Origin: a virus
DNA: 24,188 bases
Virus record (IMG/VR): IMGVR_UViG_3300023180_000390
Span: 1-24,188 of that record
Direction: 5' to 3' (one strand)
The first letter of the stretch is position 1; every line of letters starts with the position of its first letter. This document shows positions 1,956-22,700 of the stretch, piece after piece. The translations under genes and the position numbers were made by a program. The notes beneath the pieces were generated by a model, which was not told the origin of the DNA, did not search any database, and worked only from the letters and a program-made list of their open reading frames with translations.

Positions 1956-4900
1956 ATGATTACAACTGGTTTTGACGCTAGAGTAAAAGTTCAACAAATT
2001 ATTGAGAATCAGTTACCAGAATTCTTACTCAGCGAATCCCCCAAGTCTGTAGACTTTTTAAAGCAGTATTATGTCTCCCAGGAATATCAGGGAGGACCAA
2101 TTGATATTGCAGAGAATTTAGATCAATATTTAAATTTAAATAACCTTTCTCCAGAGGTTATAACTGGCACTACGACACTAACCAGTTCGGTCTCCGAATC
2201 CGATGATGTAATTTATGTTGAGTCGACCAAAGGTTTTCCCAAACAGTATGGTCTATTCAAGATTGATAATGAAATTATAACATATACTGGGATTACAAAT
2301 AATAGTTTTACTGGATGTATACGTGGTTTTAGTGGTGTTACAAACTATAGGAACGAAACCAATCCAGAAGAATTAGTTTTTTCTACATCAGATGCAGCAT
2401 CTCACTCTAATGAATCTAATGTAGAAAATCTAAGTGCTCTATTTTTAAAAGAATTCTACAAAAAATTAAAATATCTTCTTGCTCCTGGATTTGAAGATGT
2501 TGATTTTGTATCTGAACTTGATGTAAACAATTTTATAAAAAGTGCTCGCAGTTTTTATCTTTCTAAAGGAACTGATGAATCATTTAGAATTCTTTTCAAT
2601 GTCTTATATGGTGTTACACCAAAAGTTATAAACCTTGAAGATTTTCTCTTAAAGTCATCTGATGCGGAATTTATCAGAAGAGAAATATTAGTTACAGAAA
2701 GAATCTCTGGCGATCCACTAAGATTGGTCGGTCAGATGATTAGAAATATTGATGATTCTGCTACTGGACCAGTTTCCGAAGTTGAGATTATAACAAGAAA
2801 CAAAAAAACTTTTTATAAAATTCAACTTTTTTCTGGATATGATGAAAAGAGTCTAATTGAAGGAACTTTTAAAATTACTCCAAGTTCTATAGTCTCTGAT
2901 AATGTTTCTATTGGATCTTCGGTAATTACTGTTGATAGTACAATTGGATTCCCAGAATCAGGAAACCTTGTCTCTGGATCCAATACTATTACATATACCG
3001 ATAAAAGTATTAATCAATTCTTTGGTTGCCAGGGAGTTGACACATCAATAAATCCTTCTGATAACATCAGATCGGATAAAATCATTTATGGATACGAAAA
3101 TGGAGATCCATCAAAGAGAGTCGAACTAAGAGTTACGGGTGTTCTTTCTGATATTGAAAGTCCAGAAAAATTCAATCTTCTTTTAGAAGGTGATAATATT
3201 TCGGTTAAAAACCTTGGTGATAAAGTAGAAAATAATAATGAAAATAATAAGCAGTTCTCATTCAATAGTTGGATCTATAATGTAAGATCTCGTTATGAAG
3301 TAAATTCATTTAACAATAACCAATTAACTTTATTCGAACAACCAGATATCTCCAGTTTAAAGGTTGGTGATACTGTTGATGTTTTAGATAGAAACTCCGA
3401 GAATATCGTTGTTGCAGATGCAGTTGTAACTGCAATAAATTCTAAACTAGTAGAAATTAATAAAAACATTACCGGAGTTGTCTCAAATAGAAGACTGAGT
3501 ATCAGGAGAAAGTATGCTTATGCTACATCATCAAATACTCCATTAAGAGTTCCTAATATTATTTCAAATGTTCAGAACACATATAATGAAGATGATAAAT
3601 TTATCTATGTTGCATCAAATTCATTACCAGATTATCAGATAAAGAAAAAACTTTCTACTGCGAATATTTCAATAACAGCGTCTTCAAATCTGGATAATAT
3701 TTTCCAAAATTATAATGGACTAACAGATTTATACTCCGTACTATCATTCAACGATGATGTTCCATTTGTAACTGGAGACGCAATCATATATCATGGGGAT
3801 CAAGATGCTTTCCCAGAGTTAGTCTTAGGCAATACCTATTATGTTGAAGTTCTAGAAGAATCTGGAAGAAAGAATAAAATTCGTCTTTATAATGCGAGAT
3901 CTTTTATTTCTTCCCAAAATTATGTTGAATTTGGCAAATATGAAGTAGTATCAAATCACAATTTCACTATTTTACAGCATTATAATAAAACTCTAGTACC
4001 CAAAAAATCACTATCAAAATTCCCACTAGATCCAAATATTAAAACAGAAACTAATGTTCCAACTGAAGTTGGTGTAGTTGGTAAGTTAATTAATGGTGTT
4101 GATATTATTAATTACAAATCAAATGATAGAATTTACTATGGTCCTATAGATTCTTTGAAAATTTACAATAGTGGAGATGATTATGATGTAATTAATCCAC
4201 CATCAATTGTAATTTCTGGACCTGTTGGATTTGGAACAACTGCCGAAGCACAAGCAGTTGTTAGTGGATCCGTAAAGAGTGTAATTGTAGACCCTCAGAA
4301 TTTTAACATTAATAGAGTTTTGTCTGTTACTGTTACTGGAGGAAATGGTAATGGTGCTAAGTTACAGCATGTTCTTTCAAAGCAATTCAGAGAAATTGAA
4401 TTTAATGGAACACAAGTTGGTTTAGCAGCAACTGGTGGAGTTGATATTAGTAATGAAACAATAACGTTCCTTGAGAGGCACAATTTGCAGGATGGGGAAA
4501 AGATTGTCTATAATCCTGCAGGAAATCAACCATTAGGTATTGGATCATTTAAGTTCTCAAATACGGATCAAGGAAGATATTTGGTTAATGGTGCAACGTA
4601 CTATCCACAAGTTATAAACACTAGAGCAATTCACTTATATGAAACTGAAGAAGACTACTTAGCTGGAATCAATACGGTCGGTTTTACTACAATTAATACT
4701 GGTGGAACTCACAGGTTTAGATTATTTGACGCTAAGGATGTAATTTCTGAAATTAGAGTTATTGATCCAGGAAGTGGATATGAAAACAGAAGGTTGAGAG
4801 TGAAGACTTCTGGAATATCTACAGAGTACAACAAGATTGTATTTAATAATCATGGATTCAAAGATGGAGATTTGGTAAATTACTCTTATGAAACTTCAGA

Positions 4901-7900
4901 AATTGTAGGTTTAACATCATCAAAACAGTATAGGGTTATAAAACTAAATGATTCTGACTTCCAGTTGGCAGATGCTGGATCAGTCGGTGCCGCAACAACA
5001 GACTTTGAGCGAAGGAAGTTTGTAAAATTTGAGTCGACTGGAAGTGGATACCAGGAATTTTCATATCCTCCAGTACAGATTATCATCGATGCAGAATTTA
5101 CTGGATCATCAATTGGTACAATTACTGCAACTCCTCAAGTAAGGGGTCAAATTGTTGATGCATACTTGTATGATGGTGGAACCAACTATGGTTCAAATAT
5201 TTTAAATTTCCACAAAAAACCATCACTTTCCATTAGAAACGGTGTAGGTGCAGAATTAAAACCAATTATAAAATCTGGTTCTATCGTTGCCGTTGAAGTT
5301 CAAAATGGTGGAAAATATTATAATGCTGCTCCAGACCTTGTAGTAAATGGAAATGGTTCTGGGTGCAAGTTGAGAGCGGTTGTAATTGATGGAACTATCA
5401 AAGATGTCATTATTATTAATAGAGGTGTAAATTATGAAGATAAAAATACTTCTATTTCTGTAATTCCACCAGGAAAAAATGCTGTAATTGAACCAAATGT
5501 AAGATATTTAAGTGTAAATAATCTTGGAAAATTTTCCGATGAAATTTTATCTGAGTATGAAGATAATCTTTCTTATGGTGTAGTTGGATATTCTACTGAA
5601 AGAGAGGGTAATTCATTCTCAGATCCAAATCCAGATACAGGACACTCCAAGGTTATTGGATGGGCTTATGATGGAAATCCAATTTATGGACCATATGGTT
5701 ATTCGGATCCAGAAGATAATAATTCTTCAATTGTTGCCCTGAAAACTGGATATAATGAATCAATATCAAATGTATACAATAGACCATCCACATCAGTATT
5801 CCCACTGGGATTCTTTTCGGACGATTACAAATATGTGAATAACGGTGATCTGGATGAGCACAATGGAAGATTTGCAAAAACTCCAGAATATCCAGAAGGC
5901 GTTTATGCATATTATGTTGGTGTTGCAACTGCTGCACCCACTGGTAAATTAGTACCAAAATTCCCATATTTTATTGGTAATACTTTCAGATCTACTCCAG
6001 CAGAGAATATCGTAGATCAATCATTTGATTTTAACAATTCATCATTAGTTAGAAATACTTTCCCATATAGAACTAATCAAAAATATTCTGGTAGTGACTT
6101 TATAGTAGAATCTAATGAATTCTTTAATCAAATTACAACAGTAGAATCTGTTTCTGAGGGTGGAATTGAGACAGTAACTGTACTGAATCCTGGTCAAGAC
6201 TACAAAATTGGTAACCTGGTTACATTTGAAAATGAAGGAACTAATGGCGGCGGTGCTTCTGCAGAAGTTAGTAAATTGGAAGGTTACAATATTAGCAAAA
6301 TTGAGACAACATATGATGATTTTGAGAGTTCTGTTGTAACTTGGCAAGATAAACAAACATTAAGAGTTTATACTCCAAGTTTCCATTCATTTTCTTCTGG
6401 GGATAACATTTCGATATCTGGAGTTTCTACGTTCTTAAATGGTCTAGTAGACTCTCACAAAATTGGAATTTCTTCGGAAAGATCTTCTTTAGCTGAAGAT
6501 ATTCCAGCAAATGTTGGGGTTGTAACAGATATTTACGTTTCTTCAATTGGTTTAAACGTTGGATCTGGTACGACAATTGGAATTGGAACAGAATTATTCT
6601 CGGTTCTTAATAGATTTGATTCTGATAATATCTTGAGAGTTAGAAGAGGTAATGCTACCATTTCACATAGTTCTGGAGATATTGTAGATTACTTTACTGA
6701 TTCATTCACTATTTCTCTATCAAGTGAATATTTTGAATCAACAAAGAATAAAAAAACATACTTTAATCCAAAGCAATCGGTTGGAGTTGGTATTAATACT
6801 GGAACCGAAACTTCTACAAGTTTCTATATTGGCAATACGTTAAAAACGGTTTCTATTCCAGTACAAAGCATTTATATTCCAAATCATTCATTTAGGAATA
6901 ACCAAAAACTATTACTATCAATACCACAATCCGCAAATGCACTAACTGCTTCTGATACTTCTTCTGGATCAACTTTTGATCTACCAAATTCTGGATCAAG
7001 TCAATATGTTTATGTAATTAATAAATCCAAAGATTTTATTGGTTTAACGACTCAAGTTGGTTTAACTTCAACTTCTGGCGGTCTTTTCTTCACTGCTAAT
7101 GGATCTGATAATTATGAATATAGTTTAGATACTACATATCCAGAATTAACTTGTACTGCTAGAAGAATCAAAGCAAAAGTTTCTATATCAACAGATCATG
7201 GTCTAGAAGACAGGGATAAAATTAATCTAACAGTAAAACCAAAACAAACAGTTGGTGTTGGATCTTCAGATTTGATTAGGATTAAGTATAATGCTTCAAA
7301 TAAAAAATTACTTGTAAATACCGTAGGATTCTCATCATCTAAGGTAGATATCACCACCGACAAGATTTATATTGGGGATCACAATCTTTCATCTGGACAA
7401 AAGGTTTTTTATGATTCTTCCGATCTTGTTGCAAGTGGTTTAACAACAGGTAGTTATTTTGTATATAAGGTTGATAGTAATAATATTAAACTTGCAGAAA
7501 CTTATAATGACGTTTTTGCAAATCCTCCAGTTATTGTAAGTATTGGAAACAGTGGAGGTTCAGGTCAGGAACTGAGTCTCATTAATCCACAACTAAAAAT
7601 AACTAATAACAATAATATTTCCATTAATCTTCCAGATTCTTCTCTGGATGGATATAAATTTAAACTTTATTACGATCAGGATTTGAATAGTGAATTTGTT
7701 TCAACAGGAAGCACAAGTTCTTTTAATCTTCAAGGAAGTTCTTCAAATTCAATTACTATCAACCATGATGATTCATTGCCAACAAAACTTTATTACTCTT
7801 TTGAAAAAGATGGTATTTTAATTGAACCAGATATTGATGTTAAAAATTACTCAGAAATTTTATATGTCGATAGTTTTTATAATGGAGAATATGAAGTTTT

Positions 7901-10900
7901 TGGAATTGGAAATACCACATTCAACATATCTTTAAATGAGATTCCAGAAAGACTTTCATACCAATCTTCAGATTGTGAAGTCATAGAATATGATACTTCT
8001 TCACTCAATGCATCTGGACCAATTAAAAATATTAATATAATATCTTCTGGATTTAACTATAAAGTTCTACCAAGAATTGTAGGTTTAAGCACTGGATCTG
8101 CAGTTAGTGTTGGATCAAACGCGGTATTGAGGGCAAATACAAAGGATATTGGTAAAATTAACGAATATAGAATTATTAATGAAGGATTTGATTATTCTTC
8201 TGATAAGACTTTAAGACCTCAAGCAGAAATTCCAACTTTATTAACATTAACTGGATCCCAAAAAATTGAGAACATTGATGTAGTTGATGGTGGAAAAAAT
8301 TACATTTCTGCTCCATCACTAATTATTATTAACATGTATGACCGCACTTTAGTTGATAGTGGTCTTCTTGTTGCAAATTTCAAAGGAAATACTATTGTTT
8401 CTGTAGATGTTGTCGAAGAACCAAAAGGTCTGGATGATGTTGAACACAGAATATTTACAATTAATAATAGTAATGGTATTCAGGTTGAGAGAATTTTATC
8501 TTACAGTAATGGTATAGTAGAATGTGAACTAAGTACACCACCAATTGATGGATTTATTAATCCACCATTTAAATCTGGGGATAGAATATTTGTAGAAGGA
8601 ATCAAAAAGCAAGATTTTACAGATGCTTTAGGAAATGTAACTTCTCCAGGAACAGGTTTTAATTCCGCAGATAATGGATACAACTTCTTCGAAGTTACCG
8701 AATATACAAATTCAAATCCAGCGATATTAAAATATAATATTGGAGAGTTTACTGAAAATGCAGGAACTGCTGTAACCATTCAAACGACATCATTTAATTC
8801 AATCATAAAAGAACAAAACTATCCAGTTTTCAGAATAACAAGAGTTCCAAGTCTCTTCTTTGATGGAGAACTTTTGCGCGTAAATGATACAGCGACAGAC
8901 TTAGAAGTAAAAACAGTTAAGAAGAACTTTATCAAAGTTACTGGCGACTATAAGATAGAAATTGGTGATCAGATAAAAGGAGTTAACTCTGGCAACTATG
9001 CAATTATTGATAATATCTATAGAAATGAAAATAGATTCACTATAGACTATTCCAATAAAAAAGAATTTGATTGGAAGGATGATACTGGAAAACTAAATCT
9101 TGATCTTCAGGTATTACCAAATAATGACTACTATCAGAATCTCTCTTACACAATTAAGAGTACTATTGAATATGAAGAGATGCGTGATAAAGTCAACCAG
9201 TTAGTTCACCCAACTGGATTGAAAAACTTTGCAGATACTGAAATTCTCTCTAAAGCAGATGTTTCTATCGCATCTTCAATATCACTATTACCAGTTCTTG
9301 ATTTTGTCTCCGAAAGAAGAGTCGATACTATTAATAATTTTGACCTAGCATTGGATTATGATCCAACGCAAGATTCTTCTAGATTCATTATATTTAAAAA
9401 TAAAAAACTAGCTGATTATATTGAATGTAGATCAAACAGAGTTCTACAAATTGACGATATTAGTGGTAGATTTTCTAGTTCAGAATTCAATAAAGAAACA
9501 TTTACGGATACAATTGAATATCCAATTACTGACTTTTATTCTAAATTCCTCGTTCAAGTTATGGATGAGGAAAAGAGAAGCACTCAGGTTAGTGAAGTTG
9601 TAGTTTTAAACGATTATCAGGGTACATTTACTTTAAACAAAATTGATCTATTCACAGATGAAAAAATAGGAGATTTTTCTGGAGATTTTGGATCTGTTGG
9701 AGATCCAATTTTAAGATTCACTCCTATCAATCCAAATGATTTTAACTATAATCTCAAAATTTACAGAGAGTCATTTACTAGTGATCCATTTACAATTGGT
9801 ATTGGATTCACTGAAATTGGTTTTACAAGACTATCTGCAATAACGGAAAATGTAGGTCCATCTTCTGGAAATGGTCTTCTTGGTGTAAGCACAACTGTTT
9901 TCCAAGCACAGTCGGCACTTTATGATACTGTATATGCATTTGCACACGTTGTTGATACCGTTACAAATGAATCAAATTACTTTGAAATAGCAGGTCATTA
10001 TGACGGGCAGGACACTTATCTTTCAGAGTTCTACTTTGATACCAAAAAAACCTCAGTATCTGGAAATTATATTGGAACGTTTGGGTTAAATGTGGATGGT
10101 GGAGTTATTTCACTTTCCTTTGAAAATGAAAATAGTAACAATAACGTAAGAGTTAAAACAAAAGTTGTTGGTATTGGTTCAACTTCTGCTGGAGTTGGAA
10201 CATACAGATATACTGTTGATGGGCAGATTGATGGTACTGAAAGAACTGCAAGACTTGATTCTCAATATTCTATTACCTCTGGCATTTCAACCATTATTAC
10301 TTTTGATAGTATTTTAGATTCTACTTTAAAATCTATCATTAAAGTTTCTGTTGGTTCTACAGTTGCTTTACATAATTTATTAGTTGTTGCCGATCAGACA
10401 AGAACAAATATTCAACATTCACCATTCATATCCGTTGGTTCTCAGACTGGAATTGGAACTTTTGGTTCTGAAATGGTCGGTACTGATGTTGTTGTTAAGT
10501 TCTATCCAGATTCTGATTATTCTTCTGATGACATTACAGTCCAATCTTTCAACCAATTTATTTACACGGATATTGATGAATTTAACGTTCCCGAAGATTT
10601 TACTTATGGCAACGCGGTAGAAAACATAACAAATGCATTCTATGGATCTATTAATGAGTTTGGTAAAGATAAACTCGATTTTGATTTGAATTATAATAGA
10701 ATTCCTATCTTTGAAAAAACATTTAACCCAAATAATTCTAGTGTTTTAGATAGAGCAACTGGAATTTTCTCAATCGATAACCATTTCTTTGAAACTGGTG
10801 AGGAGTTAATTTATACTCCAAACTCAACTTTAATTGGTATTGATGGAGAACCAATGGGTATTGGAGAAACTATCGTTTCTGGTTCAACATTTACTGGAGA

Positions 10901-13900: not shown

Positions 13901-15161
13901 GAGAGATCTTCTATTAAATGACAACGTTCAGTCTAAAGTAAGAGATTCTTTAGAGGGAATGGTGTTCCCAACAGGAAAAGTCATACAAGATTTCTCTTCT
14001 ACAGATCTTGAAATATTCCTGGATAATTCGCAATTCTTCAACTATGAAGAAAATGAATCTAGTATTGGAATTCAAGATTTCTCTTCAATATTAATTCAAG
14101 GTGGTAATGATCCAGTTTCAGCTGCATTTACAGCAAATGTCTCTGCTGGCGGATCAATTTCTTCAGTCACAGTTCTTGATGGTGGATCTGGATATGATCC
14201 AGGATCTGTTATTGATCTAATAATTGCAAATCCAATAGGTGGAATCGGAACTATATTCAAATATGATGTTAAGAGAAGACCAGGAGTTCTTGGAATTGGG
14301 TCTGATGTTATTATCGGTATTGATACTTCATCGATTTCTGTCGGTCAAGCAATTAGATCTATTCCTAATGTTTTAGATACTACAGTTACAGTAACTGGTA
14401 TTTCTAGTGGTTCTGATGGATCTGTATCATTGAGTAAAAATGCATCAAATACCACAGTCCTTACTAGATCTTTTGATTTTGGTAGATATCAAGATCAGTC
14501 AGTTGCAATTGGATCTGCATTTGTTTCCAATTCTGGTATTGTAACTTTGACCTCTATTTCTAATGCTGGAGCTGGTTATACAGTTTCCCATCCACCCGAT
14601 ATAACAGTTTCTTCACCAAATTATGCAAGTGAATTGATTACTGGAATTAGATTTGTTGAAGGATTTAGTGGAATTATCACTGGAATAACAACAAATACTG
14701 GAACTGGAGGAAATCCACTATCCTTAACTTTCCATGTTTTATATGATTCTGTATCAGATATTAATTCATTAATCGAAAATTATCCAATTTATGTTTTTGA
14801 CACTCATGTTGGAAATGGAGTAACATCTATCGATAGTGGTGATTCTACATTAGTTGGTATTGGAACTACATTTGCAGACAATATCTACAAGATTCACTCT
14901 ATCACTAGAGATAATCTAACTGGCATTATAACTAGCAATATTCTTTCAACTACAGATGTTACTGGTATTCATACAATGCCTGGTAGTGTATGTGGAAGAT
15001 TCTCTTGGGGAAGACTCTCTGGTTTTGAGAGAACGTCTTCATCTATTGGTGTTGCCGTTTCTGGATACACAGTTAATCCTGGTCTTACTACCTTCCCAAC
15101 ACTACAGAGACGTGGTTATGGACTTAGAGATACTGGTGCCCTAAGAAAAGACCTTGGGTAA
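1956..15161 (+). CDS. 7: Giant gp7-like baseplate wedge protein with large modular insertions
   Basis: A single uninterrupted 4401-residue frame, about four times the length of T4 gp7 (1032). It carries pieces of the T4 gp7 C-terminal wedge domain: SKGTDESFRILFNVLYG at 203-219 (T4 STKGIEASYKFLFKVLYN), LVGQ at 257-260 with the following beta region to about 315 (T4 LVGQTIYTATG), then, some 2,000 residues later, W2373-DDTGKLN, DYYQNLSY at 2391-2398 and LVHPTG at 2416-2421 (T4 FVHPVG). The N-terminal half of T4 gp7 is not seen. Between the blocks lie repeated beta-rich modules and a YHYH-like domain (1229-1345). After them come about 1,960 more residues with further modules. No signal peptide or transmembrane segment is evident. 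Role inferred: wedge core plus peripheral baseplate surface. Starts 9 bases after gp6 and shares a late operon with gp8. Confidence 0.85.
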   Translation: MITTGFDARVKVQQIIENQLPEFLLSESPKSVDFLKQYYVSQEYQGGPIDIAENLDQYLNLNNLSPEVITGTTTLTSSVSESDDVIYVESTKGFPKQYGLFKIDNEIITYTGITNNSFTGCIRGFSGVTNYRNETNPEELVFSTSDAASHSNESNVENLSALFLKEFYKKLKYLLAPGFEDVDFVSELDVNNFIKSARSFYLSKGTDESFRILFNVLYGVTPKVINLEDFLLKSSDAEFIRREILVTERISGDPLRLVGQMIRNIDDSATGPVSEVEIITRNKKTFYKIQLFSGYDEKSLIEGTFKITPSSIVSDNVSIGSSVITVDSTIGFPESGNLVSGSNTITYTDKSINQFFGCQGVDTSINPSDNIRSDKIIYGYENGDPSKRVELRVTGVLSDIESPEKFNLLLEGDNISVKNLGDKVENNNENNKQFSFNSWIYNVRSRYEVNSFNNNQLTLFEQPDISSLKVGDTVDVLDRNSENIVVADAVVTAINSKLVEINKNITGVVSNRRLSIRRKYAYATSSNTPLRVPNIISNVQNTYNEDDKFIYVASNSLPDYQIKKKLSTANISITASSNLDNIFQNYNGLTDLYSVLSFNDDVPFVTGDAIIYHGDQDAFPELVLGNTYYVEVLEESGRKNKIRLYNARSFISSQNYVEFGKYEVVSNHNFTILQHYNKTLVPKKSLSKFPLDPNIKTETNVPTEVGVVGKLINGVDIINYKSNDRIYYGPIDSLKIYNSGDDYDVINPPSIVISGPVGFGTTAEAQAVVSGSVKSVIVDPQNFNINRVLSVTVTGGNGNGAKLQHVLSKQFREIEFNGTQVGLAATGGVDISNETITFLERHNLQDGEKIVYNPAGNQPLGIGSFKFSNTDQGRYLVNGATYYPQVINTRAIHLYETEEDYLAGINTVGFTTINTGGTHRFRLFDAKDVISEIRVIDPGSGYENRRLRVKTSGISTEYNKIVFNNHGFKDGDLVNYSYETSEIVGLTSSKQYRVIKLNDSDFQLADAGSVGAATTDFERRKFVKFESTGSGYQEFSYPPVQIIIDAEFTGSSIGTITATPQVRGQIVDAYLYDGGTNYGSNILNFHKKPSLSIRNGVGAELKPIIKSGSIVAVEVQNGGKYYNAAPDLVVNGNGSGCKLRAVVIDGTIKDVIIINRGVNYEDKNTSISVIPPGKNAVIEPNVRYLSVNNLGKFSDEILSEYEDNLSYGVVGYSTEREGNSFSDPNPDTGHSKVIGWAYDGNPIYGPYGYSDPEDNNSSIVALKTGYNESISNVYNRPSTSVFPLGFFSDDYKYVNNGDLDEHNGRFAKTPEYPEGVYAYYVGVATAAPTGKLVPKFPYFIGNTFRSTPAENIVDQSFDFNNSSLVRNTFPYRTNQKYSGSDFIVESNEFFNQITTVESVSEGGIETVTVLNPGQDYKIGNLVTFENEGTNGGGASAEVSKLEGYNISKIETTYDDFESSVVTWQDKQTLRVYTPSFHSFSSGDNISISGVSTFLNGLVDSHKIGISSERSSLAEDIPANVGVVTDIYVSSIGLNVGSGTTIGIGTELFSVLNRFDSDNILRVRRGNATISHSSGDIVDYFTDSFTISLSSEYFESTKNKKTYFNPKQSVGVGINTGTETSTSFYIGNTLKTVSIPVQSIYIPNHSFRNNQKLLLSIPQSANALTASDTSSGSTFDLPNSGSSQYVYVINKSKDFIGLTTQVGLTSTSGGLFFTANGSDNYEYSLDTTYPELTCTARRIKAKVSISTDHGLEDRDKINLTVKPKQTVGVGSSDLIRIKYNASNKKLLVNTVGFSSSKVDITTDKIYIGDHNLSSGQKVFYDSSDLVASGLTTGSYFVYKVDSNNIKLAETYNDVFANPPVIVSIGNSGGSGQELSLINPQLKITNNNNISINLPDSSLDGYKFKLYYDQDLNSEFVSTGSTSSFNLQGSSSNSITINHDDSLPTKLYYSFEKDGILIEPDIDVKNYSEILYVDSFYNGEYEVFGIGNTTFNISLNEIPERLSYQSSDCEVIEYDTSSLNASGPIKNINIISSGFNYKVLPRIVGLSTGSAVSVGSNAVLRANTKDIGKINEYRIINEGFDYSSDKTLRPQAEIPTLLTLTGSQKIENIDVVDGGKNYISAPSLIIINMYDRTLVDSGLLVANFKGNTIVSVDVVEEPKGLDDVEHRIFTINNSNGIQVERILSYSNGIVECELSTPPIDGFINPPFKSGDRIFVEGIKKQDFTDALGNVTSPGTGFNSADNGYNFFEVTEYTNSNPAILKYNIGEFTENAGTAVTIQTTSFNSIIKEQNYPVFRITRVPSLFFDGELLRVNDTATDLEVKTVKKNFIKVTGDYKIEIGDQIKGVNSGNYAIIDNIYRNENRFTIDYSNKKEFDWKDDTGKLNLDLQVLPNNDYYQNLSYTIKSTIEYEEMRDKVNQLVHPTGLKNFADTEILSKADVSIASSISLLPVLDFVSERRVDTINNFDLALDYDPTQDSSRFIIFKNKKLADYIECRSNRVLQIDDISGRFSSSEFNKETFTDTIEYPITDFYSKFLVQVMDEEKRSTQVSEVVVLNDYQGTFTLNKIDLFTDEKIGDFSGDFGSVGDPILRFTPINPNDFNYNLKIYRESFTSDPFTIGIGFTEIGFTRLSAITENVGPSSGNGLLGVSTTVFQAQSALYDTVYAFAHVVDTVTNESNYFEIAGHYDGQDTYLSEFYFDTKKTSVSGNYIGTFGLNVDGGVISLSFENENSNNNVRVKTKVVGIGSTSAGVGTYRYTVDGQIDGTERTARLDSQYSITSGISTIITFDSILDSTLKSIIKVSVGSTVALHNLLVVADQTRTNIQHSPFISVGSQTGIGTFGSEMVGTDVVVKFYPDSDYSSDDITVQSFNQFIYTDIDEFNVPEDFTYGNAVENITNAFYGSINEFGKDKLDFDLNYNRIPIFEKTFNPNNSSVLDRATGIFSIDNHFFETGEELIYTPNSTLIGIDGEPMGIGETIVSGSTFTGDFIVGFSSITGIANTTGITTNSLIFGPSVPSSTTEVIGISTNYTFFIGQVIGGGSTVITGVGNTSILTVGAGIFSGDNTGFGTITSIGINSITSTETIPGGSDIIYYSTDESYAIELDGVSTASTMRQSYSTGITTDICPTTVYAIRLSKDQFKLSGTAGGSGIGLTFTSIGSGNRHELEMKKKLEKTLITIDGVTQYPLMYTPLTYTLENNSATIGAGITFLSLSGISSIKPKDILKIDDEFLNIKNVGLGTTNVGPIDGTGDVPVIEVSRGFVGSSATTHSNGSVVRIYKGAYNIVGNKIHFTEAPDGKGNNNRLNSSNLALPKSSFNGRVYLRKDYTDNKIYDDISLEFNGIGRTFTVYKEGQNTTGLEAGSNLVFINDIFQTPDTPNNAGNNYFFEETESTGISSVTFTGIKRPNTDDTIIIESDVNQNQLPRGGVVISIAQTGGLGYAPPIGAKLRAETTGGVITNIVGVPTYGQAYQISTSVYNQNTGILEVTTSSPHKFTGSENDVYLENLEFSCDSAHAGVTTTIFPDGTLGNVFPVVGVVSATTFNVNIGVSTIAHSYVGQGTAYQYYSKLTFGSGYYNNVSIGVSNVYYPHRFVSAGINSITDDTTATHTATDADYDPVTGILVLTIDNHGLTTSNTIEFDDNSLSFRCSSDNYQTVRTYPRPTDPVSGISTTILSTTTNTITVNIGETGGTGAQIDVSVGAGGTLIPSIVDGGQGYGDIVFDINDPSYENLPVIGVSRLGLGNTTQTGIGLSMTLEVGPSYAATGIGSTYFQIRSYEITKPGYSYRVGDVFKVVGLVTDSRLSSPIEELQFTVTDVFEDSFASWQLGEFDFIDSISSLQDGNRTRFPLYKNSQLLSFQKNTSDVDSALIDLDSILLIYVNGVMQEPVVSYEFTGGTTFRFKEAPKSSDKIDIFFYRGTRDEDSIEVNVNETIKPGDDVQILKNDDIPQTVGQDSRIVSEIFSADIIRTGIYLGDGIDDTNYKPIDWSKQKRDLLLNDNVQSKVRDSLEGMVFPTGKVIQDFSSTDLEIFLDNSQFFNYEENESSIGIQDFSSILIQGGNDPVSAAFTANVSAGGSISSVTVLDGGSGYDPGSVIDLIIANPIGGIGTIFKYDVKRRPGVLGIGSDVIIGIDTSSISVGQAIRSIPNVLDTTVTVTGISSGSDGSVSLSKNASNTTVLTRSFDFGRYQDQSVAIGSAFVSNSGIVTLTSISNAGAGYTVSHPPDITVSSPNYASELITGIRFVEGFSGIITGITTNTGTGGNPLSLTFHVLYDSVSDINSLIENYPIYVFDTHVGNGVTSIDSGDSTLVGIGTTFADNIYKIHSITRDNLTGIITSNILSTTDVTGIHTMPGSVCGRFSWGRLSGFERTSSSIGVAVSGYTVNPGLTTFPTLQRRGYGLRDTGALRKDLG
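2517..2900 (+). other. gp7 conserved wedge block 1 (residues ~188-315)
   Basis: This part of the giant protein aligns by eye with the T4 gp7 C-terminal region: NNFIKSARSFYLSKGTDES, then FRILFNVLYG, then L257-V-G-Q, and a beta segment KKTFYKIQLFSGYDEKSLIEG corresponding to T4's GKLQWTVTIHNLLGRLIAG. In T4 the same protein continues to the HPVG block within about 150 residues of the KVLYN motif; here it is interrupted. Confidence 0.75.
4170..5435 (+). repeat. Cluster of six 'GxGY' protein repeat modules in the gp7-like protein
   Basis: Six copies of a pattern roughly [VI]-x-[VI]-x-(D/N)-x-G-x-x-Y, followed by a Pro/Gly-rich turn and another strand. The core residues are SGDDY (739-743), PGSGY (938-942), TGSGY (1028-1032), GGTNY (1074-1078), GGKYY (1118-1122) and RGVNY (1156-1160). 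The last three are spaced about 40 residues apart, suggesting a regular beta-solenoid or tandem small beta-domain. More copies occur at 1412-1416, 2031-2035, 2112-2116, 3429-3433, 3704-3708, 4076-4080 and 4204-4208 of the same protein. Confidence 0.75.
5640..5993 (+). other. YHYH-like domain within the gp7-like protein
   Basis: Residues about 1229-1346 match the YHYH family pattern in order: GWAYDGNPIYGP (1235-1246), a PLGFFSDDYKY segment, DLDEHNGRF (1298-1306), TPEYPEGVYAYY ending at 1320, and FPYFIGNTF (1336-1344). The namesake Tyr-His-Tyr-His is YAYY here (1317-1320), so both histidines are lost. The domain function is not established. It sits between two GxGY repeat clusters as an insert in the wedge protein, consistent with a surface or binding module. 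Confidence 0.8.
9069..9290 (+). other. gp7 conserved wedge block 2 (residues ~2372-2445)
   Basis: WKDDTGKLN, DYYQNLSYTIKS (2391-2402), EEMRDKVNQLVHPTGLKNF and ADTEI form a continuous conserved block. It corresponds to the T4 gp7 stretch SYYVMKIKSNLPSSRWK followed by FVHPVG. Variants of 'YYQ-SY-I-S ... LVHP-G' are widespread in tail and baseplate proteins of marine phages. This is where the gp7 wedge core resumes after the long insertion. Confidence 0.75.
12375..12575 (+). repeat. Cys/FPDG module, copy 1 of a diverged internal duplication
   Basis: Residues 3474-3540 of the giant protein: TGILEVTTSSPHKF, then LEFSC (Cys3503), TTIFPDG, and FNVNIG at the end. It is one residue shorter than copy 2 and keeps the same order of landmarks. 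At DNA level the copies have diverged, so the duplication is old or reached by modular exchange. Confidence 0.65.
12786..12989 (+). repeat. Cys/YPRPTDP module, copy 2 of a diverged internal duplication
   Basis: Residues 3611-3678: TGILVLTIDNHGL, LSFRCSSDNYQTV (Cys3640), TYPRPTDP, and ITVNIG at the end. A 'CxxD...YPR..DP...VNVG' module is, from memory, common in large tail proteins of marine T4-like phages. Copy 1 lies 137 residues upstream in the same protein. Confidence 0.65.
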
Positions 15162-15192
15162 TTAATTATAAATATAGAAAAAAGCTCTCAAG
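15162..15192 (+). other. Only intergenic gap in the window (31 bases)
   Basis: An AT-rich spacer between the giant gp7-like gene and gp8. It holds the late promoter element and no recognisable hairpin terminator. Everywhere else, genes abut within 9 bases or overlap. Confidence 0.8.
15167..15174 (+). promoter_or_regulatory. T4-type late promoter (TATAAATA) before gp8
   Basis: An exact TATAAATA in the only intergenic gap, correctly oriented for gp8. With T4 late promoter geometry, transcription would start around 15179-15182, leaving a leader of only about 11-14 bases before the gp8 ATG at 15193. The leader has no clear Shine-Dalgarno sequence. Placement in the sole gap makes this the better of the two late-promoter candidates. 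Confidence 0.7.
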
Positions 15193-16749
15193 ATGGCGGC
15201 AATTGTAACAGATCAGTTTAGAATATTAAATGCAGGGAACTTTGTAGATTCTGTTAGTGACCCTAATAATTCTTATTATGTATTTTTAAGTCTACCCAAT
15301 CCAAATGCTGTTGGATTTGGAAGGTCTACAACTTGGGATTCTAATACTCCAAATCCTGTTGATAATCTAAACTACTTAAATCATGTAAAAGATACAATGA
15401 TTTTTGGTAAGAAAATTACCGCTAATGATGTTCGTAGATTGGTGAGAAGAGTTGATTGGAGGCAGGGCACTGTTTATGAAATGTATCGCCATGATTACAG
15501 TGTAAGTAATACTTCTCCACAAACAAATTCGACTAGATTATATGATTCAAATTACTATGTAATTAATAGCGACTACAGAGTTTATATTTGTATTGACAAT
15601 GGTGCATCTTCTGCAAATCCAGCAGGAAACTTTTCACAAGATGAACCAACATTTATTGATTTAGAGCCAACAAGAGCTGGTGAAAGTGGTGATGGATACG
15701 TTTGGAAATATCTATTTACAGTTTCTCCAAGTGATATTATTAAATTTGATTCTATTGAATATATTCCCGTTCCCAACAATTGGGATACAACCACCGATGC
15801 ACAGATACAGGCGGTTAGAGAAAATGGGGATTCTTTAGTAAATGAAAACCAAATTAAAAAAGTTTATATTCAAAATCAGGGTGCTGGATATAACACAACC
15901 GATACTGAGTTAGATATTTTGGGAGATGGTGAAGGTGGAAGAGTTGTTGTTGATGTAACAGGTGGTAAGATTACTGATGTTACCGTTTCATCTGGTGGAA
16001 AAAATTATTCTTATGGAAGAGTTGACCTCTCAACTATTAATAGTGGAGCAACAGAATTTGCACATTTGATCCCCATTATTCCTCCATCCAGAGGGCATGG
16101 ATATAATCTTTATGAAGAACTTGGAACTGATAGAGTTTTAATTTATTCCCGATTTGATGACTCGACTAAAGATTTTCCTTTAGATACCAGATTCGCACAG
16201 ATTGGCATCATCAAAAACCCAACAAGAATTGGATCCGCATCTTCTATTTTCTCCGAAAATCAATTTTCAAATCTGAATGGATTAAAGTTAACTTCGGTTT
16301 CAAATCCATCCGATGCTGTTCCTGGCACAAGAATTTATCAAACAGTAACAGGTGTTGGTACAGCAACTGGATACATTGCTTCATATGATACTGAAACAAG
16401 TGTTCTAAAGTATTTTTCCGATAGATCTCTTTACTTTAATCAGAGTTCTTATGATCAAAAAGATTCCAGAAATCTTATTAATGAGGCAACAAAAGTTGAT
16501 TTTAGTATAAGTGGAGGAACGATTACTTCAACTAATAACTTTAGTGGAGCAATTGATTCTACCTTTACTGGTATAACAACAACAGTTACATCAACTAAGA
16601 GAGTCAATCTTGCAACAGAATTCAATAACGGCATATCTCTTCCTGAAATAAATAAAGGATCAGGGGAAATTATTTACGTTGATAATAGACCCAGAGTTTC
16701 TAGAAACCCTCGTCAAAAAGAAGATATTAAAATCATACTGGAATTCTAA
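15193..16749 (+). CDS. 8: Baseplate wedge protein gp8
   Basis: A 518-residue homologue of T4 gp8 (334 residues), the dimeric wedge protein that binds gp7, gp10 and gp6. Clear family landmarks: IVTDQFRILNAGNF near the N-terminus (T4 IVTSKFRTEKMLNF), RRVDW (T4 RRDW), GDGYVWKYLF at 166-175 (T4 GDGYVWEYLF), EYIPVPNNW at 189-197, a QIGIIKNPT segment (T4 QISIITNP), and the C-terminal GEIIYVDNRP at 491-500 before KEDIKIILEF (T4 GEMIYMENRP ... EEINILFTF). The extra length is mostly two inserts: about 100 residues after position 197 containing two GxGY modules, and about 150 residues before the C-terminal signature. It sits behind a late promoter, and the next gene starts two bases after its stop. The ATG at 15193 lacks a good ribosome binding site but matches the conserved N-terminus. 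Confidence 0.95.
   Translation: MAAIVTDQFRILNAGNFVDSVSDPNNSYYVFLSLPNPNAVGFGRSTTWDSNTPNPVDNLNYLNHVKDTMIFGKKITANDVRRLVRRVDWRQGTVYEMYRHDYSVSNTSPQTNSTRLYDSNYYVINSDYRVYICIDNGASSANPAGNFSQDEPTFIDLEPTRAGESGDGYVWKYLFTVSPSDIIKFDSIEYIPVPNNWDTTTDAQIQAVRENGDSLVNENQIKKVYIQNQGAGYNTTDTELDILGDGEGGRVVVDVTGGKITDVTVSSGGKNYSYGRVDLSTINSGATEFAHLIPIIPPSRGHGYNLYEELGTDRVLIYSRFDDSTKDFPLDTRFAQIGIIKNPTRIGSASSIFSENQFSNLNGLKLTSVSNPSDAVPGTRIYQTVTGVGTATGYIASYDTETSVLKYFSDRSLYFNQSSYDQKDSRNLINEATKVDFSISGGTITSTNNFSGAIDSTFTGITTTVTSTKRVNLATEFNNGISLPEINKGSGEIIYVDNRPRVSRNPRQKEDIKIILEF
15871..16008 (+). repeat. Two GxGY modules inserted in gp8
   Basis: Residues 227-272 of gp8 contain QNQGAGY (227-233) and ITDVTVSSGGKNY (260-272), the same repeat seen many times in the upstream giant protein. 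T4 gp8 lacks this segment between its EYI-VP motif and its NP motif. The two cores are 40 residues apart. Confidence 0.75.
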
Positions 16750-16751
16750 AG

Positions 16752-19700
16752 ATGTCACAAAAAACCAATTTAAACGTATCACCTTATTATGACGATTTTG
16801 ACCCAAATAAAAATTTTTATAGGGTTCTCTTCAAACCAGGTTTTCCAGTTCAATCAAGAGAATTAACTACTTTACAGTCAATTCTACAAAATCAAATAGA
16901 AACTTTTGGGAGCCACATCTTTAAAGATGGTTCTGTAGTAATTCCAGGAAATATTTCATATAATTCAGAGTATTATGCGGTTAAAATAAACCCAACACAT
17001 GTGGGATTGAGTGTTGGTTTATATTTAAATGAGTTAGTTGGTAAAAAAATAAAAGGTCAGACTTCTGGTCTAGTTGCAATAGTACAAAAAGTATTATTAA
17101 ATACTGAATCCGAAACTGAAGATTATACTTTATACGTCAAATATATTTCTTCAGACTCTTCTTTCCAAATTTCCCAGTTCAGAGATAGTGAGACTCTGAT
17201 TCTTCAAGAAAACTTAGTATATGGAAACACCACCATTGCTTCTGGAGATACATTTGCAACCCTAATAAATCAGGATGCTACCTCTACGGCGTCTGCAGTT
17301 TCCATTTCCAATGGAGTTTATTTCATTAGAGGTCACTTTGTAAGCGTTAGTGATGATACTCTAATCCTAGACCAATATACAAATACACCATCATATAGGG
17401 TTGGTCTATATGTTTCAGAATCTTTAGTAGATGCAAAAGAAGATAATACTTTATATGATAATGCAAGAGGATTTTCTAATTATGCAGCACCAGGTGCAGA
17501 TAGATTAAAAATATCTGCATCTTTAACTAAAAAGAGATTAGATGATTTAGACGATAAAAATTTTATTGAAGTTTTAAGAATTTCAAATGGTGTTGTTAAA
17601 AAAATTCAAGATTCAAACACATATTCATTAATTAAAGAGTATATTGCGGAAAGAACTTATGAAGAATCTGGAAATTATTCTGTAGATCCTTTTGAAGTTG
17701 ATGTTGAAGATTCTTTAAATGATGGTTTGAATTCTAGTGGAGTATTTTTCTCAAATCAATTAACAGACCAAGGAAACACTCCATCAGAAAATCTTTTAGC
17801 ACTTAAGGTTTCTCCTGGTAAGGCATATGTTAGAGGATTCGATGTAGAGAAGAGTGTTTCGACAATATTAGATATAGAAAAACCAAGAGATACCATAGAA
17901 GTTAGCAATTCTGCAGTCCCATTTGAGATGGGGAGTTTGCTAAAAGTTAATAGAGTTAGTGGAACCCCAGTTGTTGGTATAGATAACAATCACGTCATTT
18001 ATCTAAACAATCAAAGAAAAAATTCATCAATTGTTGGGACAGGAGAAACTATCGGTAAGGCAAGAGTTTACTCTTTCTCTTCACCAAATGAATATGAAAA
18101 TGATGCAGACAATTGGGACTTGTATCTCTATGATATTCAAACATACACTAAAATCACATTAAATCAGGCATTAACTTCTGGAGAGTGCCCTGAAACATCC
18201 TTTATCAAAGGAATGAGTAGTGGTGCTTCTGGATATGTTGTAGGAACACCTTCAGGAAATGATATTAACGTTCAACAAACTTCTGGCACTTTTACTGTAG
18301 GTGAGCAGTTATTAATTAATGGAAGCACTTCATACTCAAGAACTGTTTCTGCAGTAAAGGTTTTTGGAACACAAGATATTAAATCTGTCTTCCAAGATGC
18401 TGCAGAGGTTGGGTTATCGACTTCATTTGTCGCAGACACTTTCTTACAAACTAAAATTGCAAAGAACTTTACAAATACAGATTCTTTAGAAATTAGTGCA
18501 ACAGGTGTAGCAACTTGCGCTGGAAAGAATTTTGTAGGAATCAAGAGTGATACTATCATTAAGTATCAACTTTCTGGAAATACTTTAGAAACTTTTAATA
18601 GAGTCGAATCTGTTTCTAATGATGGTCTAACGATGACACTTGTTGCAGTTCCTACTGTATCTGGTGTTTGCAATGGTGCTTTACCAACATCAACAGTAAC
18701 AACAACTTTCTCATTGGGAGTCCCAAGTATTCAGAATGAAGAAAATTCATTCTTATATGCGAAAATCAATTCTAAAAACGTTTCTGATGTAAATCTTTCA
18801 TCTTCGGATCTAACCGTAAGAAGACAGGTTACAGGAAAATCAACATCATCTGCAGGTACACTTGCGATAAATCTATCAGATGTTGGCATCACTAGTGCTT
18901 ATTTCCAACCATACAATAATGAGAGGTATTCGATTTTTTATGATGATGGATCTGTAGATCAATTATCAAGTGATAAAGTATCTCTAAGTAGCAATTCAAC
19001 CGTTGTTACCTTTACTGGTCTCACCCCAAATGAGTCAAACGTTGTTGTTAATGCAACTGTTAAGAAAAATTCAATTACAAACAAACAAAAATTATACATT
19101 AGAAGTAATAGAGTAGACGTTACACAAACTGTTTCTGGAGTTTCAACTGCTATCAGTGGTTTAACATCTACCACAAATTATGGTCTAAGAGTTGAAGATG
19201 AGGAAATCTCTTTAAACGTTCCAGATGCAGTTAAAGTTCTTGCAGTATATGAATCTGTAAATAACGGACAAGTTGTATTAGATAAACTAACATTCACATC
19301 AGGTCTAGGATTAGATACTGAATCGATTCTTGGCGAAAAGATAGTTGGATCTACAAGTGGAGCAATTGCCCAGATAGTAACCAGAGTATCTTCAACCGAA
19401 ATTGAATTTGTTTATTTGAACTCTAATACATTTGTTGCAAATGAGACAGTAAAATTTGAAGAGTCTGGAATTTCTGGTGCAGTAACTACAGTTTTAAAAG
19501 GAACTTATACTAATAAAACATCAGACTATGTTCTAGATAAAGGACAAAAAGAACAATATTATGATTACTCCAGAATTGTTAGAAAAACTGGTGCCTCGGT
19601 TCCATCTAAGAGACTGGTTATTTTCTTTGATTATTATGAAGTTCCAACTAATGATGCTGGAGATCTTTACACAGTCAAGAGTTATGGAGAACAGAGATAT

Positions 19701-22700
19701 AAGAATGATATTCCTGTTTTGAAATCTGGTTATAGAGCTTCTGACGTATTGGATTTCAGACCTAGAGTTGCAGATTTTAATAGCACAACAACATCTCCAT
19801 TTGCATTCTCAAGTAGAAATTTTGCTTCTGCAGGTTCAAATCCAACGTTGGTTGTTTCTCCAAATGAAACTTCCAATGTAACTTATTCATATTATCTCCC
19901 AAGAATAGATAAAATTTCTCTCAACAAAAATGGAAACATAGTTATTACAAAAGGTGTTTCTGCAGATAGTCCAAAAGAACCAACGACCATTGAAGAGTCA
20001 ATGGATCTTGCTAGAATAGAATATCCTGCATATTTGTATGATGTCAATGATGTAAAAGTATATCTCTTCGATAATAGAAGATATACAATGAGAGATATTG
20101 GAAAATTAGAAGATAGAATTTCTAATGTTGAAAAACTTGCATCACTGACTCTTCTAGAACTCAATACAAAAACGTTACAAATACAAGATGCTGATGGTTT
20201 AAGTAGATTCAAGTCTGGATTTTTTGTAGACAACTTTGATGGTACTGATTTTATTAATATAGACAATCCTGATGCTAAAATTTGCATCGATACAAATAAT
20301 GATGACAATGAAATGAGATCTGATGTTTCATCATATTCTCTCAAATCTCAAGTGTCACCATCTGCATCTTTGAATGCAAATACAGAAGATTTCTCATCAA
20401 ATTTTGCACTGCAAGATTCTAATGTTAAAAAGACTGGAGATCTGGTAACTTTAAATTATAGTGAAGTTGCATGGACTAACCTATCTCAAGGATTTGCGAC
20501 AAAAGAACAGGAAATTAATCCTTTTGGAGTTGCAAATTATAATGGATTTGTAAAACTTACCCCAGCATCAGATACTTGGGTTAGAACACTTAATAGTGAA
20601 AATGGCATTGTTAGAACTCAAAGTAATTGGGAAAATACTTATATTGGAAACTTAAATCCAAGTTCTTCTCCAAACGGGAAATTTAGATCAAGAAATGTTG
20701 AATTTAGATCTAGTGGTTTAAAACCAGCAACAAATTATTATTCGTTCTTTGGAGGAAGTTCAAATATTGATATTATTCCAAAACTATTGAAAATTACAAT
20801 GGTTAGTGGAGTCTTTGAATCTGGAGAAACTGTCTATGGATATATCAATGGAAGAAAAGTTGCAGCATTTAGAGTTGCTAACTCCAATCATAAATCAGGA
20901 AAGTATAACCTACCATCAACCACATTCTCAGAGAATCCATACTCACCATCTACAACTATAAATTCATATTCTTCATCATCAACTGTTTTAAATATTGATA
21001 CTTATTCATTAGCAGATAATGCTGATGGAAGATTTTATGGATATGCTCCATCTGGTATGAGACTAGTTGGTAATACTAGCTCGGCACAAGCAACAGTTCA
21101 AGCACAAACTCTTACAACCGATTCTGTTGGTGACCTGATTGGATGCTTCTTTATCAGAAACCCACTTCAGAATCCAGCACCACCAGTTTCTTTGAAAGTT
21201 GGTTCAAAATCGTTTAAACTTTCATCAAGTTCAACAAATTCATCTGCAACTAATGTTTCATTTACTGAAACAACATTCTACGGAAGTGGAATTGTCGATT
21301 CCTCAACTTATACCGAAAGTTTAATCGTTAGAAAATCTCCCCCAGCACTTCCATTAAATGCTTTAAGAAGAGATCCTCTAGCACAGACATTTAGAACAGA
21401 CAATGAAGGTGGATTCTTAACTGCCGTTGACTTGTATTTTAGTGGAAAAGATTCTACAGAAAAATTATTTGTTGAAATTAGAGAAACTGACATTGGAGGA
21501 ACTCCAAAGGATAAATTAATTCAAGACTTTGCAAGAATTGAAGTTCTACCATCAGATATTACGGTATCTAGCGATGGTCAAACAGCAACAAAACTAAATT
21601 TCCCATCCCCAATTTACTTGCAACCAAATAAGCAATATGCTCTTGCGGTTTCATGTCCTTCTTCTGATGATTACAAAGTTTGGATTGCAGAATCAAATAA
21701 AGCAACAGTTACCACTCAATCATATCCAAATGCCGAGCAGGTAATTTACTCCAACCAATATATTGGTGGTAATCTATTCAAACCACAAAATGGTTCGATC
21801 TGGAATTCAAGTTTGCTAGAAGATCTCAAGTTTAAGTTCTATAAGGCAAACTTTACCTCTACTAGTGGAACAGTATTCTTCCACAATCCAACCTTATCTA
21901 TTGGAAGTACACATTCAGAAGTTGATGCCAATCTGCCAATCTTAATTAATAATCCAATTAAGACTCTACCAAGAAAACTCAATGTTGGTATAGTTACATC
22001 TTTTGGACTCAATACATTATTCCAAAATGGTTTAAAGGTTGCAGAAGGAGACACTTACGGATACATTGAGTCTGTTGGAGGTAATATTGGCGTTGTTACT
22101 AGCACAAAAGTTGGTGCTGGATATTCCAATGGCACATATTCAGGTGTACCTCTTTATAGTATTACTGGAAATGGAAGTGGAGCAACAGCGAATCTAACAA
22201 TTGTTAGCAATCAGTTGGCATCCATTTCGATTGCAAATACTGGTACTGGATACAGAACTGGCGATTTGCTTGGTATCACCACAAGTGCTATGACAAAGGG
22301 AAGTGGTGCTACGGTTACGGTACAATCAGTACCAAATATTGATAAACTATACTTAACTAACGTTTCTGGAGAAGAATTTGGTTCTAACCAAACTTTGTCT
22401 TACTATGAGGGAGATACTCAGATTTCTCTAGCAGGAACAGCAACACGAGGTTCATCGACTATTCCAAGTGATCTTTACAGTGGTAATGTATTTGAAGTTA
22501 TTCACTATAATCATGGTATGCACTCAAACTCTAATATTGTCAATATTAATGGAGTAGCACCAAACACTTCTGGCGAACCTCTAACTGCAAGTATCATATC
22601 TTCTAATACAACAATATCTGTTGCCAATACATCAAACTTTACAACTTTTGAGGGTGTAAATGTTTCTGGATCCAATCCAGGTTATATTATTGTAAATGAA

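What the first reader, a model, noticed from the sequence alone, without database searches (positions are those of the whole stretch)
4170..22253. The same GxGY repeat module occurs in three adjacent baseplate proteins
A module of the form hydrophobic strand, then [DNS]-x-G-x-[GN]-Y, then a turn, appears about 13 times in the gp7-like protein, twice in gp8 (229-233, 268-272) and twice in the DUF4815-type protein (1787-1791, 1830-1834). Where copies are tandem, spacing is about 38-43 residues in all three. This suggests a mobile structural unit shared between interacting wedge components. It could form matching surfaces, a polysaccharide-binding array or simple spacers.
Basis: seen in the sequence. 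Interest (0 to 1): 0.8.

Follow-up and report, generated by a model that had tools for sequence, protein, structure and literature searches.

The report
Plug-in beta domain on phage virions
A short beta-strand repeat with the signature GxGY is reused in several outer parts of a marine T4-like phage, and it looks like the same kind of add-on domain that in phage T4 juts from the tail and holds folded tail fibres, so it is probably an exchangeable surface patch rather than a chance motif.

Summary
The GxGY module is real. In gp7 the strict motif occurs 10 times against 0.8 expected; homologues back 8 gp7 sites, not 13. gp8 has one pair; the DUF4815-type protein one supported copy.

It is not confined to three wedge proteins. 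The profile also hits neck gp14, fibre, hub and other structural families and tandem arrays in bacterial proteins. No Pfam or NCBIfam model reached its cut-off over it.

Separate predictions give gp7 and gp8 the same strand pattern: 10+12-residue hairpin, GxxY, short strand. T4 gp8 has no room for the gp8 unit, whose best match is domain I of T4 sheath gp18 (Z 6.2). That domain carries GSNY and GKNY 41 residues apart; a T4 mutation that inhibits fibre retraction appears to hit the first glycine of GSNY. The profile also falls, weakly, on the inserted Ig-like domain D3* of tailspike Dpo31.

Best reading: two modules form one inserted accessory beta domain, a docking or adhesion surface. Fold link likely; homology to gp18 suggestive; function inferred.

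The parts
1956..15161 (+). gp7-like baseplate wedge protein, 4401 aa, host of most copies
   Evidence: phrog_2885 baseplate wedge subunit, 3648 bits
4146..4250 (+). GxGY module, gp7 731-765 (GDDY)
   Evidence: profile E 6.3e-7, a seed copy; 22 of 28 covering homologous ORFs
5217..5477 (+). gp7 1088-1174: modelled two-module unit holding GKYY 1119 and GVNY 1157
   Evidence: block pLDDT 84-94 over model 91-170; strands 95-104, 107-118, 125-129, 133-142, 145-156, 164-168; profile E 3.8e-6 at 1110; homologues 45/47 and 8/47
6165..6263 (+). GxGY module, gp7 1404-1436 (GQDYKIGN)
   Evidence: profile E 4.3e-9, a seed copy; 44 of 49 homologous ORFs
8022..8123 (+). GxGY module, gp7 2023-2056 (GFNY)
   Evidence: profile E 0.016; 7 of 51 homologous ORFs
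8265..8333 (+). GxGY module, gp7 2104-2126 (GKNY)
   Evidence: profile E 1 in the window, but 22 of 52 homologous ORFs at E<0.01
14157..14252 (+). GxGY module, gp7 4068-4099 (GSGYDPG)
   Evidence: profile E 1.7e-4, a seed copy; 43 of 77 homologous ORFs
14541..14621 (+). GxGY module, gp7 4196-4222 (GAGY)
   Evidence: profile E 0.068; 19 of 73 homologous ORFs
15193..16749 (+). gp8 baseplate wedge protein, 518 aa
   Evidence: phrog_438 524.7 bits, Pfam Phage-Gp8; whole model matches T4 gp8 1n7z Z 13.1
15853..16023 (+). two-module unit in gp8, 221-277 (GAGY 230, GKNY 269), for which T4 gp8 has no room
   Evidence: profile E 1.4e-9, a seed copy; hhalign P 1.8e-9 at 221-274; T4 gp8 alignment; model 222-297 matches T4 gp18 99-187, Z 6.2
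16752..23813 (+). DUF4815-type virion structural protein, 2353 aa
   Evidence: PF16075 E 1.2e-64, phrog_358
22089..22187 (+). possible first copy in the DUF4815 protein, about 1780-1812 (GAGY 1788)
   Evidence: motif only; a seed copy without a hit in the final profile
22221..22307 (+). GxGY module in the DUF4815 protein, 1824-1852 (GTGYRTGD)
   Evidence: profile E 5.7e-5, a seed copy; 9 of 44 homologous ORFs

Best explanation
The GxGY repeat is half of a small beta domain. Each repeat gives a two-stranded hairpin, the GxGY turn at the end of its second long strand, and a short strand; two consecutive repeats, about 38-45 residues apart, pack into one six-stranded beta barrel or Ig-like sandwich. 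This domain is inserted into, or appended to, conserved virion proteins (gp7, gp8, gp14, the DUF4815 protein, fibres, tailspikes) without being part of their assembly core. It is of the same kind as domain I of the T4 sheath protein gp18 and domain D3* of the marine tailspike Dpo31. It most likely works as an exposed accessory surface that docks fibres or neighbouring parts, or weakly binds cell-surface glycans. Shown here by computation: the recurrence, the shared strand pattern in the gp7 and gp8 models, the extra unit in gp8 relative to T4, and the coincidence of motif and place in gp18 and Dpo31. Inferred: the pairing of repeats, common descent with gp18 domain I, surface exposure in this phage, and the docking or binding role.
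For: The profile (0 decoys at E<0.1 in its last round) finds the module in gp7, gp8, DUF4815 and gp14; 20 two-copy segments match 16 PHROG families, 15 with structural labels and 1 unknown (labels also). Strand patterns agree: gp7 133-142/145-156/164-168 (model numbering) and gp8 247-256/259-270/275-277, GxxY at the end of the second long strand in both. Of the 50 rows shown for the gp8 model, the four that cover the insert alone are all gp18 chains (three T4 entries, one Klebsiella phage), Z 5.6-6.2, rmsd 2.7-3.0 over 72-74 residues; T4 gp18 99-176 also appears for the gp7 model, Z 3.0. T4 gp18 98-188 holds GSNY 107 and GKNY 148; the first GxxY is kept in 11 of 11 gp18 fragments. A 67-column module profile, trained without gp18, scores 7 of 11 gp18 fragments above the best of 7003 reversed proteins (8.1 bits): 21.1 and 19.1 for two Aeromonas phages, T4's 14.2 as a fragment (9.3 in whole gp18); the other 12 T4 proteins tested reach at most 3.0. 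Profile-profile P 7e-4; 0 of 300 column shuffles reach that score; of 108 T4 windows the two best are those over gp18 domain I. The T4 review (section 12) says domain I is an insertion, protrudes, binds the baseplate and retracted fibres, and that G106S, S175F and A178V inhibit retraction; all three letters fit only if numbering omits the first Met, which makes G106 the first G of GSNY. The two profile stretches in Dpo31, 435-505 (whole-sequence E 0.0045), lie in D3*, 434-536, an inserted protruding Ig-like domain.
Against: Structural matches are modest: gp8 insert Z 6.2, gp7 unit Z 3.0 with T-cell-receptor Ig domains above it at 4.1; plain Foldseek of the gp7 model against PDB found nothing below E 0.67. 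Four of 11 gp18 fragments do not beat the best decoy (8.1, 7.4, 2.6, 1.8 bits); smaller profile comparisons of gp18 with the viral alignment gave only 1.4% and 4.6% probability and the widest 26%; one shuffle came close, 22.0 against 22.6. The second GxxY of gp18 is in T4 only, not in the other 10 fragments. In Dpo31 the two stretches overlap and are weak singly (E 6.5 and 0.044), and a wider profile gave E 0.13, below one antibody light chain at 0.081. Arrays show no two-repeat periodicity in sequence: copies two apart were more alike than neighbours in 21 of 49 arrays. I found no functional data for the cyanophage copies.
Confidence: 0.6

Rival explanations
1. Matched interface: copies in gp7, gp8 and the DUF4815 protein pack against each other and tie wedge parts together.
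For: Three adjacent wedge genes carry it; the gp8 copy is found in 82 of 83 homologous ORFs.
Against: It is also in the neck protein gp14, in fibre families, in a tailspike and in bacterial proteins; in T4 the wedge proteins gp6-gp11 score at most 3 bits with the module profile.
Confidence: 0.1
2. Glycan-binding modules: copies are weak carbohydrate binders that hold the phage on the cyanobacterial surface.
For: Dpo31 authors report distant similarity of D3* to sugar-binding Ig-like domains, Z 2.9 and 2.8; one bacterial protein with 12 copies also has a beta-1,3-glucanase (GH64) and a dockerin.
Against: In T4 the reported partners of gp18 domain I are tail fibres and baseplate; no binding was tested; only 1 of 8 bacterial proteins scanned had a carbohydrate enzyme.
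Confidence: 0.3
3. Common Ig-like or beta arrangement reached independently: the GxGY turn is a recurring solution and the link to gp18 domain I is convergence.
For: Z values below 8 can reflect a common arrangement (note); gp18 profile probability only 26%; 4 of 11 gp18 fragments do not beat the decoys; second motif not conserved in gp18.
Against: Motif position, spacing of 41 in T4, fold match and inserted placement agree; 0 of 300 column shuffles.
Confidence: 0.25
4. Chance motif in flexible glycine-rich loops.
For: The motif count in the DUF4815 protein alone is not above chance (294 of 1000 shuffles).
Against: 10 against 0.8 in gp7; no decoy hits at E<0.1 in the last profile round; confident local fold in gp7.
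Confidence: 0.02

Closest known systems
Domain I (residues 98-188) of T4 tail sheath protein gp18 (PDB 3FO8, 3FOA)
   Same: Best structural match of the gp8 unit; GxxY motifs 41 residues apart at the matching place; inserted domain that protrudes in T4
   Different: In the sheath, not in wedge or neck; its GxxY runs into GD, as in DUF4815 1831 but not in most window copies; second motif only in T4; has a helix
Domain D3* (434-536) of tailspike Dpo31 of marine phage Carin-1 (PDB 28LX, 8CK1)
   Same: GAGY and GSGY found there by the viral module profile, 435-505; inserted, protruding, Ig-like
   Different: In a podovirus depolymerase; authors report distant similarity to sugar-binding Ig-like domains, and gp18 is not mentioned in the text
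Phage accessory Ig-like domains, including 'additional domains' of tail sheath proteins (PMC9230969)
   Same: Beta-sandwich add-ons of virion proteins, proposed there to aid adhesion or stability (passages)
   Different: No Pfam Ig-type model matched these modules at its cut-off or among the weak hits; half-domain repeat with its own GxGY signature

Membership tests
T4 gp18 domain I | six-stranded beta-barrel fold, gp8 unit | tested here: inconclusive
   Z 6.2, rmsd 2.7, 73 residues to 3fo8; the insert-only rows shown are all gp18; below the Z 8 guide
T4 gp18 domain I | same fold, gp7 unit | tested here: inconclusive
   3fo8 99-176 at Z 3.0, T-cell-receptor Ig domains at 4.1
T4 gp18 domain I | conserved GxxY near the start of the domain | tested here: met
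   GxxY in 11 of 11 gp18 fragments and in the gp7 and gp8 units
T4 gp18 domain I | sequence homology by profile | tested here: inconclusive
   P 7e-4, probability 26%, 0 of 300 shuffles; 7 of 11 gp18 fragments above the best decoy, 4 not; narrower profile 1.4-4.6%
T4 gp18 domain I | inserted in a host protein whose relatives lack it | tested here: met
   Between EYI(V/P)VP and the next aligned block T4 gp8 has 17 residues where window gp8 has about 79; the exact edges are uncertain, since hhalign aligned only 2-194. P-SSM4 gp14 has 0 copies, 13 other gp14 ORFs 1-4
T4 gp18 domain I | protrudes from the virion, binds fibres and baseplate | not testable with these tools
   known for T4 only
Dpo31 D3* | sequence profile falls on D3* 434-536 | tested here: met
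   two overlapping stretches 435-505, whole-sequence E 0.0045, singly 6.5 and 0.044; E 0.13 with the wider profile
Dpo31 D3* | same fold as the gp7 and gp8 units | not tested
   no pairwise superposition was available; not among the rows shown
Pfam or NCBIfam curated families | a curated model covering the module at its cut-off | tested here: not met
   none over the modules; six families with one member each, best E 0.011

The most novel reading that the evidence does not exclude
The GxGY unit is an unnamed, widely shared extracellular half-domain that T4-like phages plug into almost any outer virion protein (neck, wedge, hub, fibre, sheath), that also occurs as long arrays in bacteria and an archaeon, and whose first described function is the fibre-docking patch of T4 gp18. 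The T4 retraction mutation G106S would then be a lesion of the signature turn itself.
Probability: 0.4. Interest if true: 0.65.

Novelty: new variant of a known kind. Interest (0 to 1): 0.5.

Why it matters
It would join a repeat family without a curated model to two solved structures and a mutant phenotype, give a testable function to the large expansions of cyanophage gp7, gp8 and gp14, and let annotators separate the conserved core of these very large proteins from exchangeable surface units.

Tried and rejected
Chance motif: rejected for gp7 and gp8 by shuffles and decoys. Wedge-only matching surfaces: rejected as the general explanation by gp14, fibre, tailspike and bacterial copies. Two-repeat periodicity in long arrays: looked for, not found (21 of 49 arrays); 41 of 51 arrays of at least 4 copies have an even count, but many come from one phage family and the cut-off at 4 biases this. 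The first profile iteration had a faulty redundancy filter that counted shared gaps; it was rerun and only that was used. A gp14-based search of PDB hit only the gp14 core, outside the repeats; a four-copy gp14 stretch hit nothing. Other Ig-like or jelly-roll folds are not excluded by the lists. Literature: searches showed me no paper that names this repeat or links gp18 domain I with gp8, gp14 or Dpo31; I saw their listings (6-20 titles each, two searches empty), and the library holds open-licence papers only, so this is no proof of absence. Papers seen: PMC3004832 (section 12 and passages), PMC9230969 (passages), PMC13317679 (passages and the discussion section); all others only as search listings.

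Rows left out: A1 used 20 of the 53 segments; A2 35 of 42 relatives listed plus the window; A3 51 of 72 plus the window; A4 51 of 69 segments plus 3 window copies; all picked for diversity. The gp18 alignment used T4 and 10 further records of 1377 found. Homologue counts include overlapping and near-identical contigs.
Full report
What the window is. A 24,188-base virus record with four long genes in a row: gp6 (84-1946), a 4401-residue gp7-like wedge protein, gp8 and a DUF4815-type virion protein. Relatives of gp8 are mostly cyanophages: 550 records in the phage collection, all below 60% identity; it is a cyanomyovirus-like phage.

Is the observation there? Yes, at the stated residues. The strict motif occurs 10, 3, 1 and 0 times in gp7, gp8, DUF4815 and gp6, with shuffle means of 0.82, 0.10, 0.35 and 0.05. 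The DUF4815 count alone is not above chance. A profile seeded with 8 window copies and iterated over 705 ORFs of 85 sequences gave 244 hits at E<1e-3 and none at E<0.1 among 1410 reversed or shuffled decoys in the last round; one decoy passed 0.1 in round 3. It gives E<1e-3 for gp7 731, 1110, 1404 and 4068, gp8 221 and DUF4815 1824; seed copies are favoured, so the control that counts is the decoys and the hits in homologues. Mapping those to the window supports 8 gp7 sites, two of them (1148, 2023) in only 8 of 47 and 7 of 51 ORFs.

How far it spreads. In related loci the same profile finds up to four tandem copies in neck protein gp14 (13 of 14 gp14 ORFs with 1-4 copies at E<0.1, none in P-SSM4; several ORFs are cut by the locus end), a 1443-residue P-SSM4 protein and its YadA-like protein. 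S-T4 gp14 matches, through its repeats, gp7, gp8, hub-lysozyme, fibre, other structural and some unknown PHROGs; twenty two-copy segments matched 16 PHROGs, 15 with structural labels and one unknown. In three complete cyanophage genomes the two-copy profile hit 15 ORFs: 10 carry virion-type annotations (counting the VriC protein, a relative of the DUF4815 protein), and 5 are annotated hypothetical, of which two are relatives of wedge proteins and three are unknown; none is annotated metabolic. The pattern was made to find consensus copies, so these numbers show presence in many phyla, not frequency. Of eight such proteins scanned, one has a GH64 glucanase with dockerin and others fn3 or multicopper oxidase domains; no Pfam family reached its cut-off over the arrays, with two sub-threshold overlaps (FLgD_tudor in L112, Tafi-CsgC in L150).

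Structure. The gp7 1003-1232 model is poor overall (pLDDT 61.5), but blocks over 91-170 score 84-94 and show two hairpin-plus-short-strand units. The gp8 model (65.6 overall, 76-85 over 221-280) shows the second unit with identical long-strand lengths and spacing, 10-2-12. DUF4815 was not modelled. The gp8 model matches T4 gp8 (Z 13.1), and each of the four rows shown that cover only 221-298 is a T4-type gp18, residues 98-188, Z 5.6-6.2. By the first aligned residues (gp8 222 with gp18 99), GAGY 230 falls on gp18 107, the G of GSNY; the tool gives only range ends, so this is an inference. For gp7 the list is led by T-cell-receptor Ig domains (Z 4.1), with gp18 99-176 at 3.0, and the range starts (109 with 99) again place GKYY on GSNY. 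Foldseek alone gave no convincing PDB hit (best E 0.67). BFVD matches of the gp7 model include wedge, neck and other structural proteins.

Link to T4. T4 gp18 reads TISTPGSNYAVGDKITV ... DGKIKKINIPTGKNY within 102-151. Of 13 T4 structural proteins only gp18 scores above 3.0 bits with the module profile. gp18 fragments score 21.1, 19.1, 14.6, 14.3, 14.2 (T4), 10.9, 10.8, 8.1, 7.4, 2.6 and 1.8 bits in their best stretch, T4's whole gp18 9.3, against 8.1 for the best of 7003 reversed proteins: 7 of 11 exceed it and 4 do not. In the 11 aligned fragments the first GxxY is invariant and followed by [VI]GD or VDD; the second is present only in T4. Profile-profile comparison with the widest alignment gives P 7e-4, probability 26%, with 0 of 300 column shuffles as good (best 22.0 against 22.6), and the best two of 108 T4 windows are those over domain I; with the viral alignment alone the probability was 1.4% and 4.6%. 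[quoted passage not shown] With the first Met counted, 106 is P and 178 is L; without it all three letters fit, so G106 is G107 of GSNY.

Second structural link. The viral two-copy profile finds Dpo31/Dpo36 of marine phage Carin-1 in two overlapping stretches over 435-505 (whole-sequence E 0.0045; singly 6.5 and 0.044). [quoted passage not shown] The wider profile with bacterial rows scored it at only E 0.13, one antibody light chain being better. The agreement of place carries more weight than the score.

Most likely working. Two modules make one compact accessory beta domain that is inserted or appended outside the conserved core: in gp8 it sits where T4 gp8 has only 17 residues between aligned blocks (edges uncertain); in gp14 it follows the T4-like core and varies in number. 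By analogy with gp18 domain I and D3*, it offers an exposed surface for fibre or neighbour docking or weak adhesion. The recurrence and the shared strand pattern are shown computationally; common descent with gp18 is likely but not proven; the role is inference. The pair rule rests on gp8, gp7 1110/1148, gp18 and Dpo31; long arrays gave no support for it.

Novelty. Accessory Ig-like domains of phages are known; PMC9230969 discusses such additional domains in sheath proteins and possible adhesion (passages). What seems new is the GxGY family itself, its spread and the link of gp18 domain I with wedge, neck and tailspike copies; the searches listed under Tried and rejected showed no such statement in the open-licence library.

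None of this moved the odds by more than their own uncertainty, so they are unchanged.

Noticed in passing
window 5637-5927 (gp7 1228-1324): A YHYH domain (PF14240, E 7.7e-26) sits inside gp7, about 54 residues after the modelled GxGY pair; the P-SSM4 1443-residue protein also joins YHYH and GxGY modules.
   Followed up: no
window gp7 about residues 70-131, 306-372, 1529-1593, 3218-3269 and DUF4815 about 1910-1975: A possible second shared module, with IDNEIITYTG...FTGCxRG in its clearest copy. A rough profile made from these five stretches also hits gp7 of S-T4 and ACG-2014f and a P-SSM4 protein, with no decoys at E<1e-3; its seed alignment was poor and the window hits are by construction.
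   Followed up: partly
L142, L144, L150, L160, L176, L183, L217: Proteins from genome contigs, one archaeal (L176, a Methanoperedens MAG; the title of L217 was not shown), with 6-15 GxGY copies; L142 also has a GH64 glucanase and a dockerin.
   Followed up: partly
gp14 ORFs of L082, L083, L084, L013 and ten other loci: Copy number of the module in gp14 varies from 0 (P-SSM4, L084) to 4 between cyanophages; some ORFs are cut by the locus end.
   Followed up: partly
L082 20001-21563: The deposited S-T4 gp8 gene (20331-21563) starts 330 bases after the start of the match to window gp8 (20001-21560), so the annotated start is probably too late.
   Followed up: no
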